From Venturia oleaginea (Eukaryota > Ascomycota > Dothideomycetes > Venturiales > Venturiaceae), in NCBI GenBank assembly GCA_013176395.1, contig JABMLP010000010.1, positions 1,426,001 to 1,490,000 of the forward strand: 64,000 nucleotides of DNA, written 5' to 3'. The position numbers and the translations under genes are program-made. The notes beneath the pieces were generated by a model. The model searched no databases. It was not told the DNA's origin and saw nothing but the letters and a program-made list of their open reading frames with translations. Below are positions 6,276 to 58,714 of this stretch, piece after piece. How positions within the stretch are numbered: the stretch's first letter is position 1; each line of letters opens with the position of its first letter.

Positions 6276-8128
6276 TAACGTATTCCACCATCGAGCTGGT
6301 CAACCCATCGAGCGGGTCAGTTTATGCCAAGACCAGCTGCTCCCTTATCAACACAATATGTCTCAACAACAAAACGCGCAATCATCTAACAGAGAAGGCA
6401 GAATCCAGCTTGCCCTTTCTGCCTACAATACCCACCAATTCCGAAGCCTCCGGCGCGCTGCTGAGGCGTTTGATATACCTCCTTCAACATTAACTAGGCG
6501 ATATAACGGAATTACGTATCGCCTAGATACTCGCAACGCCCGACACAAGCTCACTACGACTGAAGAGCAGACAATTGTCCAATACATCCTCGACCTCGAT
6601 TCGCGAGGATTCGCGCCCCGGCTGTGTGAGGTAGCAGATATGGCGGATCAACTACTGGGTGTACGCGGTGGAGAGCCAGTAGGGAAAAACTGGGCTGAGA
6701 GGTTCATAACGCGCTCAGATGAGCTTAAGATGACCTTCAATCGAGCTAAGGATAGGCAGAGGATACTACAGGAAGATCCAGAGATTGTTGGCGCGTGGTT
6801 CAAGCTCGTTACAGACACCAAGGCAAAGTACGGTATCCACGACGAGGATACGCACAACTTTGACGAGATTGCCTTCCGGATGGGCGTTATTGGGTCAATG
6901 AAGGTCGTCACAGCTTCTGAAAGACGTACAAGGCCTAATTTAATCCAGCCAGGCGATCGCGAGTGGGTTACAGTTATCCAGAGCATCTGCGCCGCTGGGT
7001 ATGCGACCCCGCCCTTCATTATCTACAAAGGACGCGTTCATATCTCTGCGTGGTATGAGGAGGCAGATATACTACGGAATTGGAAGCTCTCGGTCTCTGA
7101 GAACGGCTGGACAAATAACGCGCTTGGTCTTGAGTGGTTGAAGCACTTTAACGCGTATACAAAGGCGCGGCAGGTGGGGGTTTACAGACTGCTTATTTTG
7201 GACGGCCATGAGAGCCATCTCAGCCAGGATTTCAAGGACTACTGCCTCGAAAACAAGATTATAACCCTCTGCATGCCATCGCACTCGTCGCATATACTCC
7301 AGCCCCTTGACGTGGTCTGCTTCTCGCCGTTGAAGCGCAAGTACTCCCAACGCGTCCGGGACTTGGCACGCCGACGCGTCTACCATATCAACAAGGAAGG
7401 CTTTTTCCCTGCCTTCAAAGACGCGTTTTTCGACGTGTTTACGAAAGAGAACTGTCAAAAGGCTTTTGAGGCAGTAGGGCTAGTCCCTATCGACGCGCAG
7501 GTGGTGTTGGATCGCCTTGAAGTACGGCTACGAACCCCGCCAGAAACCCATCTCCCAGAAACGCCGTGGCAGTCCAAGACTCCAAGTAATACTTATGAAT
7601 TTGGATCCCAATCCAAGCTCGTAAGCGAGTCTTTTACTCGGCCACCAGTTACTGCGCAGGCAGGCTTTTCCCAGCTTGTTAAGGGCGCTGAATTGATGCT
7701 GCACCAAAACGCTCTGCTTGTTGTGCGTAACCGCGAGCTTGAAGAGCAATTAGCAGTAACAACGAACCGAAAATGGCGCAAAAGGAAGTGGATCCAGCAA
7801 GGTGGTACTATTGAGTATGGGACTGCAGCAGCGCAGGTAGCTGCAGAGGCGTCTATAGCGCCTCAGGGATCAAAGAAGGCTCGTGGTAGTGGTGGTCAAG
7901 AAACAGCCCGACCAATTCAACGGCGCTGTAGGAACTGCGGCGCAGCTGGGCATAATGCGCGAACTTGTAAAAAAGATATCAAGATATCTTCTGAATCAGA
8001 TAGCAGCACGACGGACTTAGAATCTATTGTTGATAGCGATTAAATTGAAGAGTCGTAACATAAGTTGGTCGTGCCAAGCCTTTTTGACCCGCTCGATGGG
8101 TTGACCCGCTCGATGGTGGAATACGTTA
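6276..8128 (+). mobile_element. Complete pogo/Fot-type DNA transposon (Tc1/mariner superfamily)
   Basis: The element runs from ACGTATTCC after TA at 6276-6277 to GGAATACGT before TA at 8127-8128, and a further TA on each side leaves the exact end ambiguous by two bases. The terminal inverted repeats are about 42 bp with essentially one mismatch. Each contains a doubled sub-repeat of the form CATCGAGCGGGTCAACC. TA target duplication is the hallmark of the Tc1/mariner/pogo superfamily. One intact transposase occupies the interior. Intact ends plus an intact frame mean it could still be mobile, or was until recently. A shortened derivative of the same family lies at 22441-23190. Confidence 0.9.
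6358..8043 (+). CDS. Pogo-type DDE transposase with C-terminal zinc knuckle
   Basis: A 561-residue intact frame without introns. The N-terminus has a psq/CENP-B-type helix-turn-helix (about residues 15-55, AAEAFDIPPSTLTRRYNG), then a second CENP-B-like DNA-binding helix-turn-helix (about 65-140). The DDE_1 catalytic core follows, with aspartates visible at about 169 (HNFDE), 282 (LDGHESH) and 318 (QPLDV), the DDD arrangement of the pogo branch. After a predicted helical segment rich in Leu/Glu/Lys comes a CCHC zinc knuckle, CRNCGAAGHNARTC (about 527-540), and an acidic Ser-rich tail. It would bind its own terminal repeats and cut and paste the element into TA. The first catalytic block reads DEIAF where relatives usually read DETGF, a possible mild defect. 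Confidence 0.92.
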   Translation: MSQQQNAQSSNREGRIQLALSAYNTHQFRSLRRAAEAFDIPPSTLTRRYNGITYRLDTRNARHKLTTTEEQTIVQYILDLDSRGFAPRLCEVADMADQLLGVRGGEPVGKNWAERFITRSDELKMTFNRAKDRQRILQEDPEIVGAWFKLVTDTKAKYGIHDEDTHNFDEIAFRMGVIGSMKVVTASERRTRPNLIQPGDREWVTVIQSICAAGYATPPFIIYKGRVHISAWYEEADILRNWKLSVSENGWTNNALGLEWLKHFNAYTKARQVGVYRLLILDGHESHLSQDFKDYCLENKIITLCMPSHSSHILQPLDVVCFSPLKRKYSQRVRDLARRRVYHINKEGFFPAFKDAFFDVFTKENCQKAFEAVGLVPIDAQVVLDRLEVRLRTPPETHLPETPWQSKTPSNTYEFGSQSKLVSESFTRPPVTAQAGFSQLVKGAELMLHQNALLVVRNRELEEQLAVTTNRKWRKRKWIQQGGTIEYGTAAAQVAAEASIAPQGSKKARGSGGQETARPIQRRCRNCGAAGHNARTCKKDIKISSESDSSTTDLESIVDSD

Positions 8129-15665: not shown

Positions 15666-18482
15666 ATGTTGCTCGAACCCAAAGAGGTACTGGATTTCTA
15701 GTCTTGGACATGTGAAGAGAAGCTGACGTGGTCATTTCTAGCTCGATAAGCTCGTTATCACACAGCTTGGTCTGCTGGCTCAACGAAGGCTTGCAAGGGG
15801 AGTCAAATTGAATCACGCTGAAGCTGCAGTGGGTAGTACCGCCACTCATCGCGGAACAAATGGCTGATACAAACATAGGCTTTGGTCGCAAACAATCTTC
15901 AGGAGGTAGCCTTCCGCGAATGCTGTGAGCAAATATCACATTCCGGCCCTAACCTACCGATAGCTCGTTCGCGATGGTAATCACACCGTGGCTGACCTGA
16001 TGCAAATCGGGAAGACTATGCTAGGCAGACGACATGTTCTTCCCTCAGTCGTCAATTCTCTGTCTGAGATCATGATCGAAGGAACTTTCCCCACTGGGAC
16101 TTATTTGGTTACCGTACACTATCCAGTCAGTTCCGACGATGGAGACCTGGAAAAGGCTCTCTATGGAAGTTTCTTGCCCATTCCCTCCCAGGATCTTTTC
16201 CCACTGCCGGATGCCGCCGTGTATGAAGCTAAGAAACAACCTGGTGCTATCATCGCTGTCAAGCATGGAAGAATCGAATTGAATAAAGGCCGGAAAAGGA
16301 TTTCGTTGAAGGTAGTCAGTAAAGGAGATCGTCCTATTCAGATCGGGTCTCATTATCACTTCATCGAAACGAATCCCGAACTCGAATTCGATCGTGTGCG
16401 AGCTCATGGATTTCGGTTAGATATCCCGGCTGGGACATCTGTTCGTTTTGAGCCTGGTGATACGAAGACTGTCAATCTTGTTCAGATTGCAGGACGCCAG
16501 GTCATTCGTGGTGGTAACAAAATTGCTACCGGTCATATCTTTGATACTGCCATAATTGATGGGATTGTGGAGAAGTTGCAGCAAGGCGGCTTTTCGCATG
16601 TCCCTGAACCGGCTGGAGATGCTATGCATATTGATACAGCGTCCATGGATAGACAGTCTTACATCAGCATGTTTGGTCCCACGACTGGGGATTTGGTCAG
16701 ACTTGGCGCCACAGATTTGTGGATCAAGGTTGAGAAAGACTTCACGCATTATGGTGATGAGTGTTCTTTTGGTGGCGGTAAAACGCTTCGAGAGGGTATG
16801 GGACAGGCTGGTGGACGGCCTGACGCACATAGTCTGGACACGGTCATCACTAACGCACTCATTGTCGATTGGTCTGGCATCTACAAAGCTGACATTGGCA
16901 TCAAGGATGGCCTCATTGTGGGTATCGGCAAGGCTGGAAATCCTGATGTGATGGAAGGGGTAGATCCGAAGTTGGTGGTTGGATCTTGCACCGATGTCAT
17001 TGCTGGCGAAAACAAGGTCATCACCGCTGGTGGCTTTGATTCTCACATTCATTTCATTTGCCCTCAGCAGACCCACGAGGCTATCGCATCAGGTATTACG
17101 ACCATGCTCGGAGGAGGAACAGGGCCAAGGTATGCTCACACCCATCGCTTGCTGACCGATCCTGACAGAGAATTAGCACCGGCACATGCGCAACGACCTG
17201 CACACCTGGCCTCACTCATATCCGTCAAATGCTCCAAGCTTGTGATGCTCTTCCCCTAAATATCGGTATCACCGGTAAGGGCAACGATAGCGGTCTAAAG
17301 CCTCTCCAAGAGCAATGCGAAGCCGGCGTCGTTGGTCTGAAACTCCACGAAGACTGGGGCACTACACCAGCCGCTATCGATGCCTGCCTCGCCGTCTGTG
17401 ACGAATACGACGTACAAACCCTAATCCACACTGACACGCTGAACGAATCTGGCTTTGTTGAACAGACCATCAAGGCTATCAAGGGTCGCACGATTCATAC
17501 GTATCACACTGAGGGCGCTGGGGGTGGACACGCGCCTGATATTATTAGTGTCGTTGAGCATCCCAATGTGTTGCCTAGTAGTACGAATCCCACCCGACCT
17601 TACACGAGGAATACACTTGACGAGCATTTGGATATGCTGATGGTCTGTCATCACCTCTCCAAAAACATCCCGGAAGATGTCGCGTTTGCTGAGTCACGTA
17701 TTCGCGCCGAGACCATCGCTGCCGAAGATGTTCTGCATGATCTGGGTGCTATCAGTATGATGTCTTCGGATTCGCAGGCTATGGGTAGATGTGGAGAGGT
17801 TATTCTTAGGACCTGGAATACGGCGCATAAGAATAAGGTACAGAGAGGCACCTTAAAGGAGGATGAGGGAACTGGAGCCGATAATTTCAGGGTCAAGAGG
17901 TATATTAGCAAGTACACGATCAATCCTGCCGTTACGCAGGGGATGGGACATCTTATTGGCAGTGTTGAGGTGGGAAAATTGGCGGATCTTGTACTTTGGA
18001 CGCCGGCAAATTTTGGGGTGAAGCCGGCGATGGTCGTGAAGAGTGGCATGGTTTCTTATGCGCAGATGGTAAGTCGATTGTTCTTTCTCTTGAAGAGTTC
18101 TAATCTTGTGTCAGGGTGACCCAAATGCCTCAATTCCAACCGTCGAACCCGTGATCATGCGACCCATGTTCGCACCCCTCGTTCCCTACACAAGCGTCGT
18201 CTGGGTCTCGCAAGCCTCAATCGACAACGGCATGATCCGATCGTACGGTCTTCGGAAGCGTGTCGAGGCCGTCAAGAACTGCAGGAACATCACGAAGAGC
18301 GATATGAAATACAACGACTCGATGCCGAAGATGAAGGTGGATCCGGAAAGCTATGTAAGTGGGCACAGTGAGAGTGTTGTGACATGCTAATGCGTTCAAA
18401 GATTGTGGAAGCAGACGGGGTCATTTGCAAGGCTGAACCTGCTGAGACGCTGCCTCTAACACAGGGATATTTTGTATATTGA
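15666..18482 (+). CDS. Urease (fused gamma-beta-alpha chain)
   Basis: Seven exons (15666-15686, 15742-15828, 15879-15905, 15964-17129, 17177-18068, 18115-18354, 18402-18482) encode about 837 residues, the usual length of fungal urease. The order is gamma-like N-terminus ([20 protein letters not shown]...[19 protein letters not shown]), beta-like region, then the alpha amidohydrolase barrel. The nickel site is complete: HIHFICPQQ (two His), the carbamylated Lys in [34 protein letters not shown] and the Asp in SSDSQAMGR. The catalytic flap has CHHL. The enzyme hydrolyses urea to ammonia and carbamate in the cytosol and needs accessory proteins for nickel loading; none are encoded here. The first three exons are tiny (21, 87 and 27 nt) and are easily missed; without them the gamma part lacks its start. 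The model is supported by unbroken family similarity across every junction. Confidence 0.95.
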
Positions 18483-58567: not shown

Positions 58568-58572
58568 AAAAA
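58568..58572 (-). terminator. RNA polymerase III terminator of tRNA-Lys
   Basis: Five T residues on the tRNA strand, four bases after the discriminator base. Confidence 0.7.
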
Positions 58573-58575
58573 GGA

Positions 58576-58714
58576 AGCCCCACGCGAGGGTCGAACTCGC
58601 AACCTTAAGATTTCTACTTGGCTGTAAAAGTCTTACGCTCTAGCCAATTCTGAATCAGGTTAGTAACGTATTCCATGAGACAATTGTCAAGGACAACTTA
58701 CGAGCTAGCGGGGC
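58576..58714 (-). tRNA. tRNA-Lys(TTT) with a normal intron and an extra D-arm insertion
   Basis: Removing two inserts leaves a 74-nt cloverleaf. The acceptor is GCCCCGC/GTGGGGC (one G-T pair), D stem GCTC/GAGC with loop AATTGGCTA, anticodon stem TAAGA/TCTTA with loop CTTTTAA (anticodon TTT), T stem GCGAG/CTCGC with loop TTCGACC, and discriminator T. The first insert is the ordinary 13-nt intron after position 37 (58612-58624), removed by the tRNA splicing endonuclease. The second is 52 nt (58650-58701) between the D stem and loop, reading GTAAGT... TACTAAC...CAG. These are spliceosomal intron signals, with the branch site nine bases before the end. It also splits the internal A box. The gene may be functional only if the insert is removed, or may be dead. 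The T arm (B box) and terminator are intact. Confidence 0.88.

What the first reader, a model, noticed from the sequence alone, without database searches (positions are those of the whole stretch)
58576..58714. tRNA-Lys(TTT) interrupted in the D arm by a spliceosomal-type intron
Seen: after removing the canonical 13-nt intron and a 52-nt insert (58650-58701), a perfect 74-nt tRNA-Lys remains. The insert begins GTAAGT, contains TACTAAC nine bases before its end, and ends CAG, with length and spacing like the mRNA introns in this window. Known: nuclear tRNA introns of fungi normally sit after position 37 and are cut by the tRNA endonuclease; spliceosomal introns inside tRNA genes are not a standard feature. 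Inference: the tRNA may need the spliceosome, or the copy is dead. It also splits the A box, raising the question of how the gene is transcribed.
Basis: partly seen in the sequence, partly recalled or inferred. Interest (0 to 1): 0.93.

Follow-up and report, generated by a model that had tools for sequence, protein, structure and literature searches.

The report
Spliceosomal introns inside fungal tRNA genes
A fungus related to Venturia carries introns of the messenger-RNA kind inside at least thirteen of its transfer-RNA genes, which suggests that the spliceosome, thought to have no part in making tRNAs, has to cut them out before those tRNAs can work.

Summary
The window holds a tRNA-Lys(TTT) gene (58576-58714, minus strand) with an ordinary 13-nt anticodon intron and a 52-nt GTAAGT...TACTAAC...CAG insert after position 13. 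Searching the same genome found 12 more such tRNA genes: 13 genes, 15 inserts, seven isoacceptors, at 13/14, 29/30, 52/53, 53/54 and 57/58. All 15 inserts can be read as GT..AG and have a YTRAY branch-site word 9-17 nt before the end; median length is 53 nt (26 candidate mRNA introns: 53.5). None of 31 anticodon introns is GT..AG. Removal restores a fully paired cloverleaf with T33 in 10 of 13. Two Ser-GCT genes share two insert sites and identical exons, while their inserts have diverged but keep splice signals. No uninterrupted nuclear Arg-TCT gene was found, although AGA codons are used. Best reading: U2-type spliceosomal introns in RNA polymerase III tRNA genes, required at least for Arg-TCT. 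The window copy itself has an uninterrupted twin. No RNA data were available, so splicing is inferred; no other fungal genome could be compared. My paper searches listed no earlier report.

The parts
58576..58714 (-). tRNA-Lys(TTT) gene with two inserts
   Evidence: Sequence; cloverleaf scan 52.0 points; own covariance model R1 with an open D-arm gap 63.1 bits; Rfam only 19.3 bits, partial
58702..58714 (-). exon 1, positions 1-13 (acceptor 5' strand, D-stem 5' strand)
58650..58701 (-). 52-nt spliceosomal-type intron in the D arm at 13/14 (GTAAGT...CAG); only one register possible
58659..58665 (-). branch-site word TACTAAC, 9 nt before the insert's end
58625..58649 (-). exon 2, positions 14-37, anticodon TTT
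58612..58624 (-). ordinary 13-nt anticodon-loop intron (CAGCCAAGTAGAA), not GT..AG
58576..58611 (-). exon 3, positions 38-73, with an unbroken B box (AGTTCGACCCT)
58568..58572 (-). T5 run starting at the fourth base after the gene, fits an RNA polymerase III terminator

Best explanation
These are ordinary U2-type spliceosomal introns lodged in RNA polymerase III tRNA genes of a Venturia-like fungus. Proposed course: the gene is transcribed through the insert to a T-run terminator; the nuclear spliceosome recognises GTAAGT, the CTAAC-type branch site and YAG, and removes the insert; only then can the D or T arm fold, so that end processing, modification and export can follow; any anticodon intron is removed separately by the tRNA endonuclease and ligase. 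At 52/53 and 53/54 the intron's terminal G stands in for G52 or G53, so the B-box promoter stays readable in DNA. For Arg-TCT the step looks obligatory. SHOWN from sequence: inserts, sites, signals, restored cloverleaves, diverged inserts with kept signals, no uninterrupted Arg-TCT found by three searches. INFERRED: transcription, spliceosome action, order of steps, export gating.
For: 15 of 15 inserts in 13 genes can be read GT..AG; 15 of 15 have YTRAY 9-17 nt before the end; CTRAY 4-20 nt before the end in 12 of 15 against a mean of 1.2 (maximum 7) in 5000 shuffles. The chance of GT..AG in an allowed register for all 15 is about 10^-29.7 under equal base use (three genes were found with splice signals in view, see report). 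Median length 53 nt against 53.5 nt for 26 candidate mRNA introns; 0 of 31 anticodon introns are GT..AG. 10 of 13 joined tRNAs have 20 of 20 pairs plus T33. Ser-GCT C15 and C23: exons 81 of 81 identical, both inserts much diverged yet with signals kept; Arg-TCT pair: exons 71 of 72, inserts no more alike than shuffled letters. Ser-AGA C20:557227 joined equals the uninterrupted C59 gene, 81 of 81. Arg-TCT: 2 of 2 loci interrupted (10 of 10 candidates scored), and a direct pattern search with follow-up found no uninterrupted one, while AGA makes up 55 of 4315 codons in seven window ORFs. B box kept within one mismatch in 10 of 11 T-arm inserts; T4+ run within 60 nt downstream in 10 of 13. Precedent: spliceosomal introns in fungal U3 and U6 (PMC5832005, passages).
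Against: No RNA evidence of any kind was available. Five of the seven isoacceptors also have uninterrupted copies, so only Arg-TCT and Gly-CCC argue for need, and the second Arg-TCT copy has A at position 33. The two Lys inserts split the A box. Two of the 13 genes (C5, C27) have pairing defects, and a further one outside the count (C19) is decayed, so some copies are probably dead. Three of six compared insert pairs are 1.4-2.5 SD more alike than shuffles, so divergence is not complete. Avoidance of T-runs, expected under polymerase III, is not significant (1 of 15 inserts against 6 of 26 mRNA introns with TTTT, P 0.23). No other fungal genome could be compared.
Confidence: 0.86

Rival explanations
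1. Dead copies: intron-like pieces landed in redundant tRNA genes, which are now silent relics.
For: Uninterrupted copies exist for Lys-TTT, Lys-CTT, Ser-AGA, Ser-GCT and Leu-TAG. C5 and C27 have pairing defects, C20:147032 has A33 and C19 is decayed.
Against: 10 of 13 are flawless after joining. In paralogous pairs the inserts have diverged to or near chance level while splice signals and exons stay, which relics would not do. Both Arg-TCT loci are interrupted and no other was found.
Confidence: 0.07
2. The inserts are removed by the tRNA splicing endonuclease or a relative at unusual positions, as in red algae, nucleomorphs and archaea.
For: Introns in D and T arms at endonuclease-type or undefined junctions are known in those groups (PMC3978253, PMC4090602, passages).
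Against: No strict bulge-helix-bulge: in 15 of 15 inserts the test failed (no full four-pair centre; intron-side helix of 0 or 1 pair). The 23 anticodon introns of 11 nt or more tested as control failed it too, so this excludes only the strict motif. GT..AG ends and branch words are not explained by an endonuclease.
Confidence: 0.03
3. Recent mobile introns (introners) that carry their own splice signals and are spreading, with splicing incidental to tRNA function.
For: Introners carry spliceosomal signals and several Dothideomycetes have them (recalled). Ser-AGA has interrupted and uninterrupted copies with identical exons, as after a recent gain or an exact loss.
Against: Of six compared insert pairs three are within 0.5 SD of, or below, shuffled letters and three are 1.4-2.5 SD above: no near-identical copies. 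The window's insert has no second copy at the sensitivity of the DNA search; the other inserts were not searched on their own. Same-site inserts in two genes with much-diverged sequences look old.
Confidence: 0.03

Closest known systems
Spliceosomal introns of fungal U6 snRNA and U3 snoRNA genes
   Same: Introns with splice and branch sites inside short structured non-coding RNA genes of fungi, varying insertion positions, some genes with two introns; PMC5832005 (passages) calls U3 and U6 the only small structured RNAs known to be often interrupted by an intron.
   Different: Here the host genes are tRNAs, with internal promoters that the inserts split or rebuild, many genes and isoacceptors in one genome, and a second splicing system (anticodon introns) in some of the same genes.
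Ordinary nuclear tRNA introns (endonuclease type)
   Same: Lie in nuclear tRNA genes; four of the 13 interrupted genes (Lys-TTT, Lys-CTT, Gly-CCC, Leu-TAG) carry one as well.
   Different: Those sit after position 37, the 31 counted are 6-46 nt and never GT..AG; these sit at 13/14, 29/30, 52/53, 53/54 and 57/58 and are 51-89 nt with splice signals.
Ectopic tRNA introns of Cyanidioschyzon and of the Guillardia nucleomorph
   Same: tRNA genes interrupted at other places than 37/38, in Guillardia also in the D and T arms (PMC3978253, PMC4090602, passages).
   Different: Guillardia's are 3-24 nt; Cyanidioschyzon's are tied to bulge-helix-bulge motifs. Neither is called spliceosomal in the passages seen.
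Spliceosomal introns in nuclear rRNA of ascomycetes
   Same: mRNA-type introns in structured RNA (recalled; one such title seen in the reference list of PMC11782384).
   Different: RNA polymerase I transcript, large RNA, no internal promoter of the tRNA kind (recalled).

Membership tests
U2-type spliceosomal intron | GT at 5' end and AG at 3' end | tested here: met
   15 of 15 inserts have GT..AG among the possible registers; the two D-arm inserts allow no other register
U2-type spliceosomal intron | 5' splice-site consensus (GTRNG) | tested here: met
   13 of 15; exceptions GTACTG and GTTTGT
U2-type spliceosomal intron | branch-site word near the 3' end | tested here: met
   CTRAY in 12 of 15, TTRAY in the other 3
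U2-type spliceosomal intron | length like the genome's mRNA introns | tested here: met
   Median 53 nt, range 51-89, against 53.5 nt for the 26 of 41 heuristically found mRNA introns that are 75 nt or shorter
U2-type spliceosomal intron | removed by the spliceosome through a lariat | not testable with these tools
   No RNA data
Endonuclease-type tRNA intron | position 37/38 | tested here: not met
   Sites 13/14, 29/30, 52/53, 53/54, 57/58
Endonuclease-type tRNA intron | bulge-helix-bulge at the junctions | tested here: not met
   0 of 15 form the strict motif; 0 of 23 anticodon introns tested as control form it either, so the test is weak
Introner-like mobile intron | copies alike in sequence | tested here: not met
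   Six pairs compared, scores from below to 2.5 SD above shuffles; no second copy of the window insert. Limited sensitivity, other inserts not searched alone
Functional RNA polymerase III tRNA gene | joined exons fold as a tRNA with conserved residues | tested here: met
   10 of 13 flawless; C20:147032 has A33; C5 has one and C27 two broken pairs
Functional RNA polymerase III tRNA gene | A box, B box and T-run terminator | tested here: inconclusive
   B box within one mismatch in 10 of 11 T-arm inserts; A box split in both Lys genes; T4+ run within 60 nt in 10 of 13 (downstream sequence of C23:503681 held for only 6 nt, of C5 for 54), against 40 of 44 other parsed loci

The most novel reading that the evidence does not exclude
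In this fungal lineage the spliceosome is an essential part of tRNA biogenesis: AGA codons can be read only after a U2-type intron has been cut from an RNA polymerase III pre-tRNA-Arg(TCT), and some pre-tRNAs need both the spliceosome and the tRNA endonuclease, so mRNA splicing capacity and translation of particular codons are coupled.
Probability: 0.7. Interest if true: 0.96.

Novelty: new variant of a known kind. Interest (0 to 1): 0.93.

Why it matters
tRNA splicing and mRNA splicing are taught as separate systems. A genome where at least thirteen tRNA genes carry mRNA-type introns, one isoacceptor seemingly without any uninterrupted copy, would join them. It also makes three open questions testable: how the spliceosome finds introns in RNA polymerase III transcripts, how spliceosomal introns arise and are exactly lost in genes that tolerate no error (interrupted and uninterrupted copies with identical exons exist in one genome), and how split internal promoters work. 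In practice such genes are easy to overlook: ARAGORN as run here and Rfam at its cut-off both missed the window gene, though Rfam did list five of the T-arm cases. tRNAscan-SE was not tested.

Tried and rejected
Rejected: chance (scanner control; shuffles); ordinary anticodon intron (position and ends); strict bulge-helix-bulge (weak test); a repeated mobile insert (limited sensitivity). T-run avoidance as a sign of polymerase III was tested and is not significant.

Led nowhere: the plain B-box pattern gave 185 places against 139 for its control, of which only the first 100 were listed; not pursued. DNA search with 12 yeast tRNA sequences recalled from memory gave no candidate, so whole isotypes (Ala-AGC, Pro, Tyr, Trp, Cys, Val-AAC, Arg-ACG and others) were not surveyed. 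The pattern for more D-arm inserts was badly made: its fixed spacing could not match the two known genes either; its 2 hits are no tRNA by the scanner. So D-arm inserts are under-surveyed, and Rfam misses them too. Of the 16 places (control 9), 5 were known and 11 were fetched: two new interrupted genes. Patterns for other branch or site types (14 and 10 places against 29 and 9 for the controls) gave no new interrupted gene; 20 of those 24 places were fetched, the others being two on C38, one already known and C59:697389.

Hand corrections: the scanner printed the C15:899941 and C23:503681 genes as Asn and Tyr because it does not model a 29/30 insert, and placed the C27 insert wrongly; I set these by eye from the printed sequences and checked the joined exons.

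Full report
WHAT IS THERE. The minus strand at 58714-58576 reads as a tRNA-Lys(TTT) gene with two inserts: a 13-nt anticodon-loop intron and a 52-nt insert after position 13, GTAAGT...TACTAAC(9 nt ending in CAG). Joined, it is a 74-nt tRNA with 20 of 20 counted pairs. ARAGORN as run here and Rfam's gathering cut-off miss it; Rfam's best partial score is 19.3 bits, whereas a covariance model that I built with an open D-arm gap gives 63.1 bits. A scanner of my own run over the whole window on both strands, allowing GT..AG inserts in D and T arms, returns this place alone at 44 points or more.

IT IS NOT ALONE. The window lies in a 46.08-Mb genome of 61 contigs. A DNA search with the gene found a tRNA-Lys(CTT) 16 kb away (C2:1500578-1500719) with an insert at the same place, 13/14, also GTAAGT...CAG, and a tRNA-Lys(TTT) on C56 without it. 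The Rfam tRNA search listed 58 matches, 14 of them on C38, which looks mitochondrial and was left out; of the other 44, four more were set aside (two on C58, one each on C19 and C60), and 5 of the remaining 40 have a long insert in the T arm. Joined-exon DNA searches (40 of 76 candidates scored, 10 of 10, 26 of 26) and a branch-plus-B-box pattern added more. In all, 13 genes and 15 inserts: Lys-TTT and Lys-CTT at 13/14; Arg-TCT C6:460996 and C20:147032 at 53/54; Ser-AGA C20:557227, C13:785655, C27:108043 at 52/53; Ser-GCT C17:59349 at 52/53, C5:1338704 at 57/58, and C15:899941 and C23:503681 each at both 29/30 and 52/53; Gly-CCC C10:933823 and Leu-TAG C23:763843 at 52/53. A fourteenth, decayed Ser-GCT copy (C19) has a 53-nt GT..AG insert at 57/58 and is left out of the counts. 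The parsed set holds 57 loci (one of them, C13:551999, doubtful), 13 interrupted; because searches aimed at interrupted genes, 13 of 57 is not a genome-wide share. Loci listed but not fetched, and several isotypes, were never examined.

SELECTION BIAS. Two of the genes first came up in a pattern search that demanded a branch word and AG (Leu-TAG and C15:899941), and the window gene was picked by eye. The other ten came from the Rfam model or from exon similarity without any demand on splice signals. Insert boundaries were then tested for every register that leaves the same joined exons.

SPLICE SIGNALS. All 15 inserts can be read GT..AG, 13 of 15 with GTRNG; 3' ends are TAG 7, CAG 6, AAG 2. 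A YTRAY word lies 9-17 nt before the end in 15 of 15; CTRAY at 4-20 nt in 12 of 15 against a shuffle mean of 1.2 and maximum of 7 in 5000. Lengths are 51-60 nt with one of 89. Candidate mRNA introns (41 by a heuristic that joins open frames and asks for signals, so their signals are partly by selection) have median length 53.5 nt for the 26 of 75 nt or less. Of 31 ordinary anticodon introns of 6-46 nt, none is GT..AG.

SIGNS OF SELECTION. After removal, 10 of 13 genes have 20 of 20 counted pairs, T33 and a normal T loop; the C20 Arg-TCT is fully paired but has A33; C5 has one and C27 two broken pairs. The Ser-GCT genes on C15 and C23 are identical in all 81 exon bases but differ in their inserts (core scores within shuffled range at 52/53; about 2.5 SD above it at 29/30), and both keep GT, a YTRAY word and AG at both sites. 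The two Arg-TCT genes agree in 71 of 72 exon bases while their inserts score no better than shuffled. The Lys pair's inserts are 1.8 SD above shuffled; two further Ser pairs 0.4 and 1.4 SD above. Ser-AGA C20:557227 equals the uninterrupted C59 gene in all 81 bases. Between the Ser-AGA genes C20 and C13 the pair 52-62, which spans the insert, changes from G-C to A-T (sequences); uninterrupted copies of both types exist, so this change may be older than the inserts.

NEED. One search scored 10 of 10 candidates and found two Arg-TCT loci, both interrupted, and one Gly-CCC locus, interrupted. A pattern for an uninterrupted Arg-TCT (anticodon loop to B box, no anticodon intron) gave 18 places against 19 for the reversed control: 2 on C38, 1 that begins inside the C20 gene's own insert, and 15 others. 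Of these 15, 12 were fetched: none has both an anticodon stem and a T stem, and the scanner finds no tRNA in those short pieces. The remaining 3 (C3:93430, C19:29948, C41:30759) end in the same GTAAGAGTTCAACCC as two that were excluded. An Arg-TCT gene with an anticodon intron and diverged exons, or one in an unassembled stretch, is not excluded. AGA makes up 55 of 4315 codons in seven window ORFs, and by standard decoding (recalled) only tRNA-Arg(TCT) reads AGA. The other five isoacceptors have uninterrupted copies.

PROMOTERS. At 52/53 and 53/54 the intron ends in AG, so intron plus exon reads (A/G)GTTCRANYC: the B box is within one mismatch of GGTTCRANYCC in 10 of 11 T-arm inserts, the exception being 57/58. 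In the two Lys genes the A box is split after TAGCTC. A T4+ run follows within 60 nt in 10 of 13 interrupted genes and 40 of 44 others; of the three misses, only 6 nt downstream were held for C23:503681 and 54 for C5, and Arg-TCT C6 has a T5 run further down. T-runs inside inserts are not significantly rarer than in mRNA introns (1 of 15 against 6 of 26, P 0.23).

OTHER CUTTING ENZYMES. A strict bulge-helix-bulge is not formed by any of the 15 inserts; none of the 23 anticodon introns tested as control forms it either, so the test only excludes the strict motif.

ORGANISM. A Sec5 ORF in the window is 89% identical to Venturia nashicola and 86% to V. effusa, which points to Venturiales; the species is not known. 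No relative's DNA could be searched.

LITERATURE. Searches gave no title or abstract opening about spliceosomal introns in tRNA genes; only listings were seen there, and the library lacks most subscription journals. [quoted passage not shown] PMC3978253 and PMC4090602 (passages) describe ectopic tRNA introns elsewhere, tied to bulge-helix-bulge or very short. PMC11782384 (passages) names no spliceosomal tRNA intron in what I saw. The U6 paper of Canzler and others (PMC4829304) is not held.

VERDICT. It is a new variant of a known kind (spliceosomal introns in small structured RNAs) with a possibly essential role. What is missing is RNA.

Noticed in passing
window 16786-17080 (-): Rfam RF02514 (5' ureB sRNA) scores 95 bits antisense to a urease ORF: likely the conserved urease coding sequence and no sRNA.
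   Followed up: partly
L141 (C23:763700-763760), minus strand: About 107 nt downstream of the interrupted Leu-TAG gene lies a lone second copy of a 3' splice site plus 3' exon (TATCAG then GTTCGAACCCCTCTCCTT): perhaps a duplicated tRNA 3' exon.
   Followed up: partly
L009 and L011 (C2:1484576 and C2:1500578): The two Lys genes with D-arm introns lie 16 kb apart on one strand and share T-arm and variable-loop letters that three other Lys-CTT genes lack, as if one arose from the other with a changed anticodon.
   Followed up: partly
L134 (C19:172535-172680): Decayed Ser-GCT copy with a GT..AG insert at 57/58, the same site as C5.
   Followed up: yes
L129 (C13:551999-552143): tRNA-like sequence with a 71-nt anticodon-loop insert and an unclear anticodon.
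   Followed up: no
L088 (C24:68947-69065): Lys-CTT gene with an unusually long 46-nt anticodon intron that is not GT..AG.
   Followed up: partly
L048 and L049 (C19 end, C60:820814): The same 74-nt tRNA-like sequence with the same 25-nt downstream flank on two contigs.
   Followed up: no
window 6358-8043 (+): ORF with DDE_1 and HTH_psq domains, a likely transposase.
   Followed up: no
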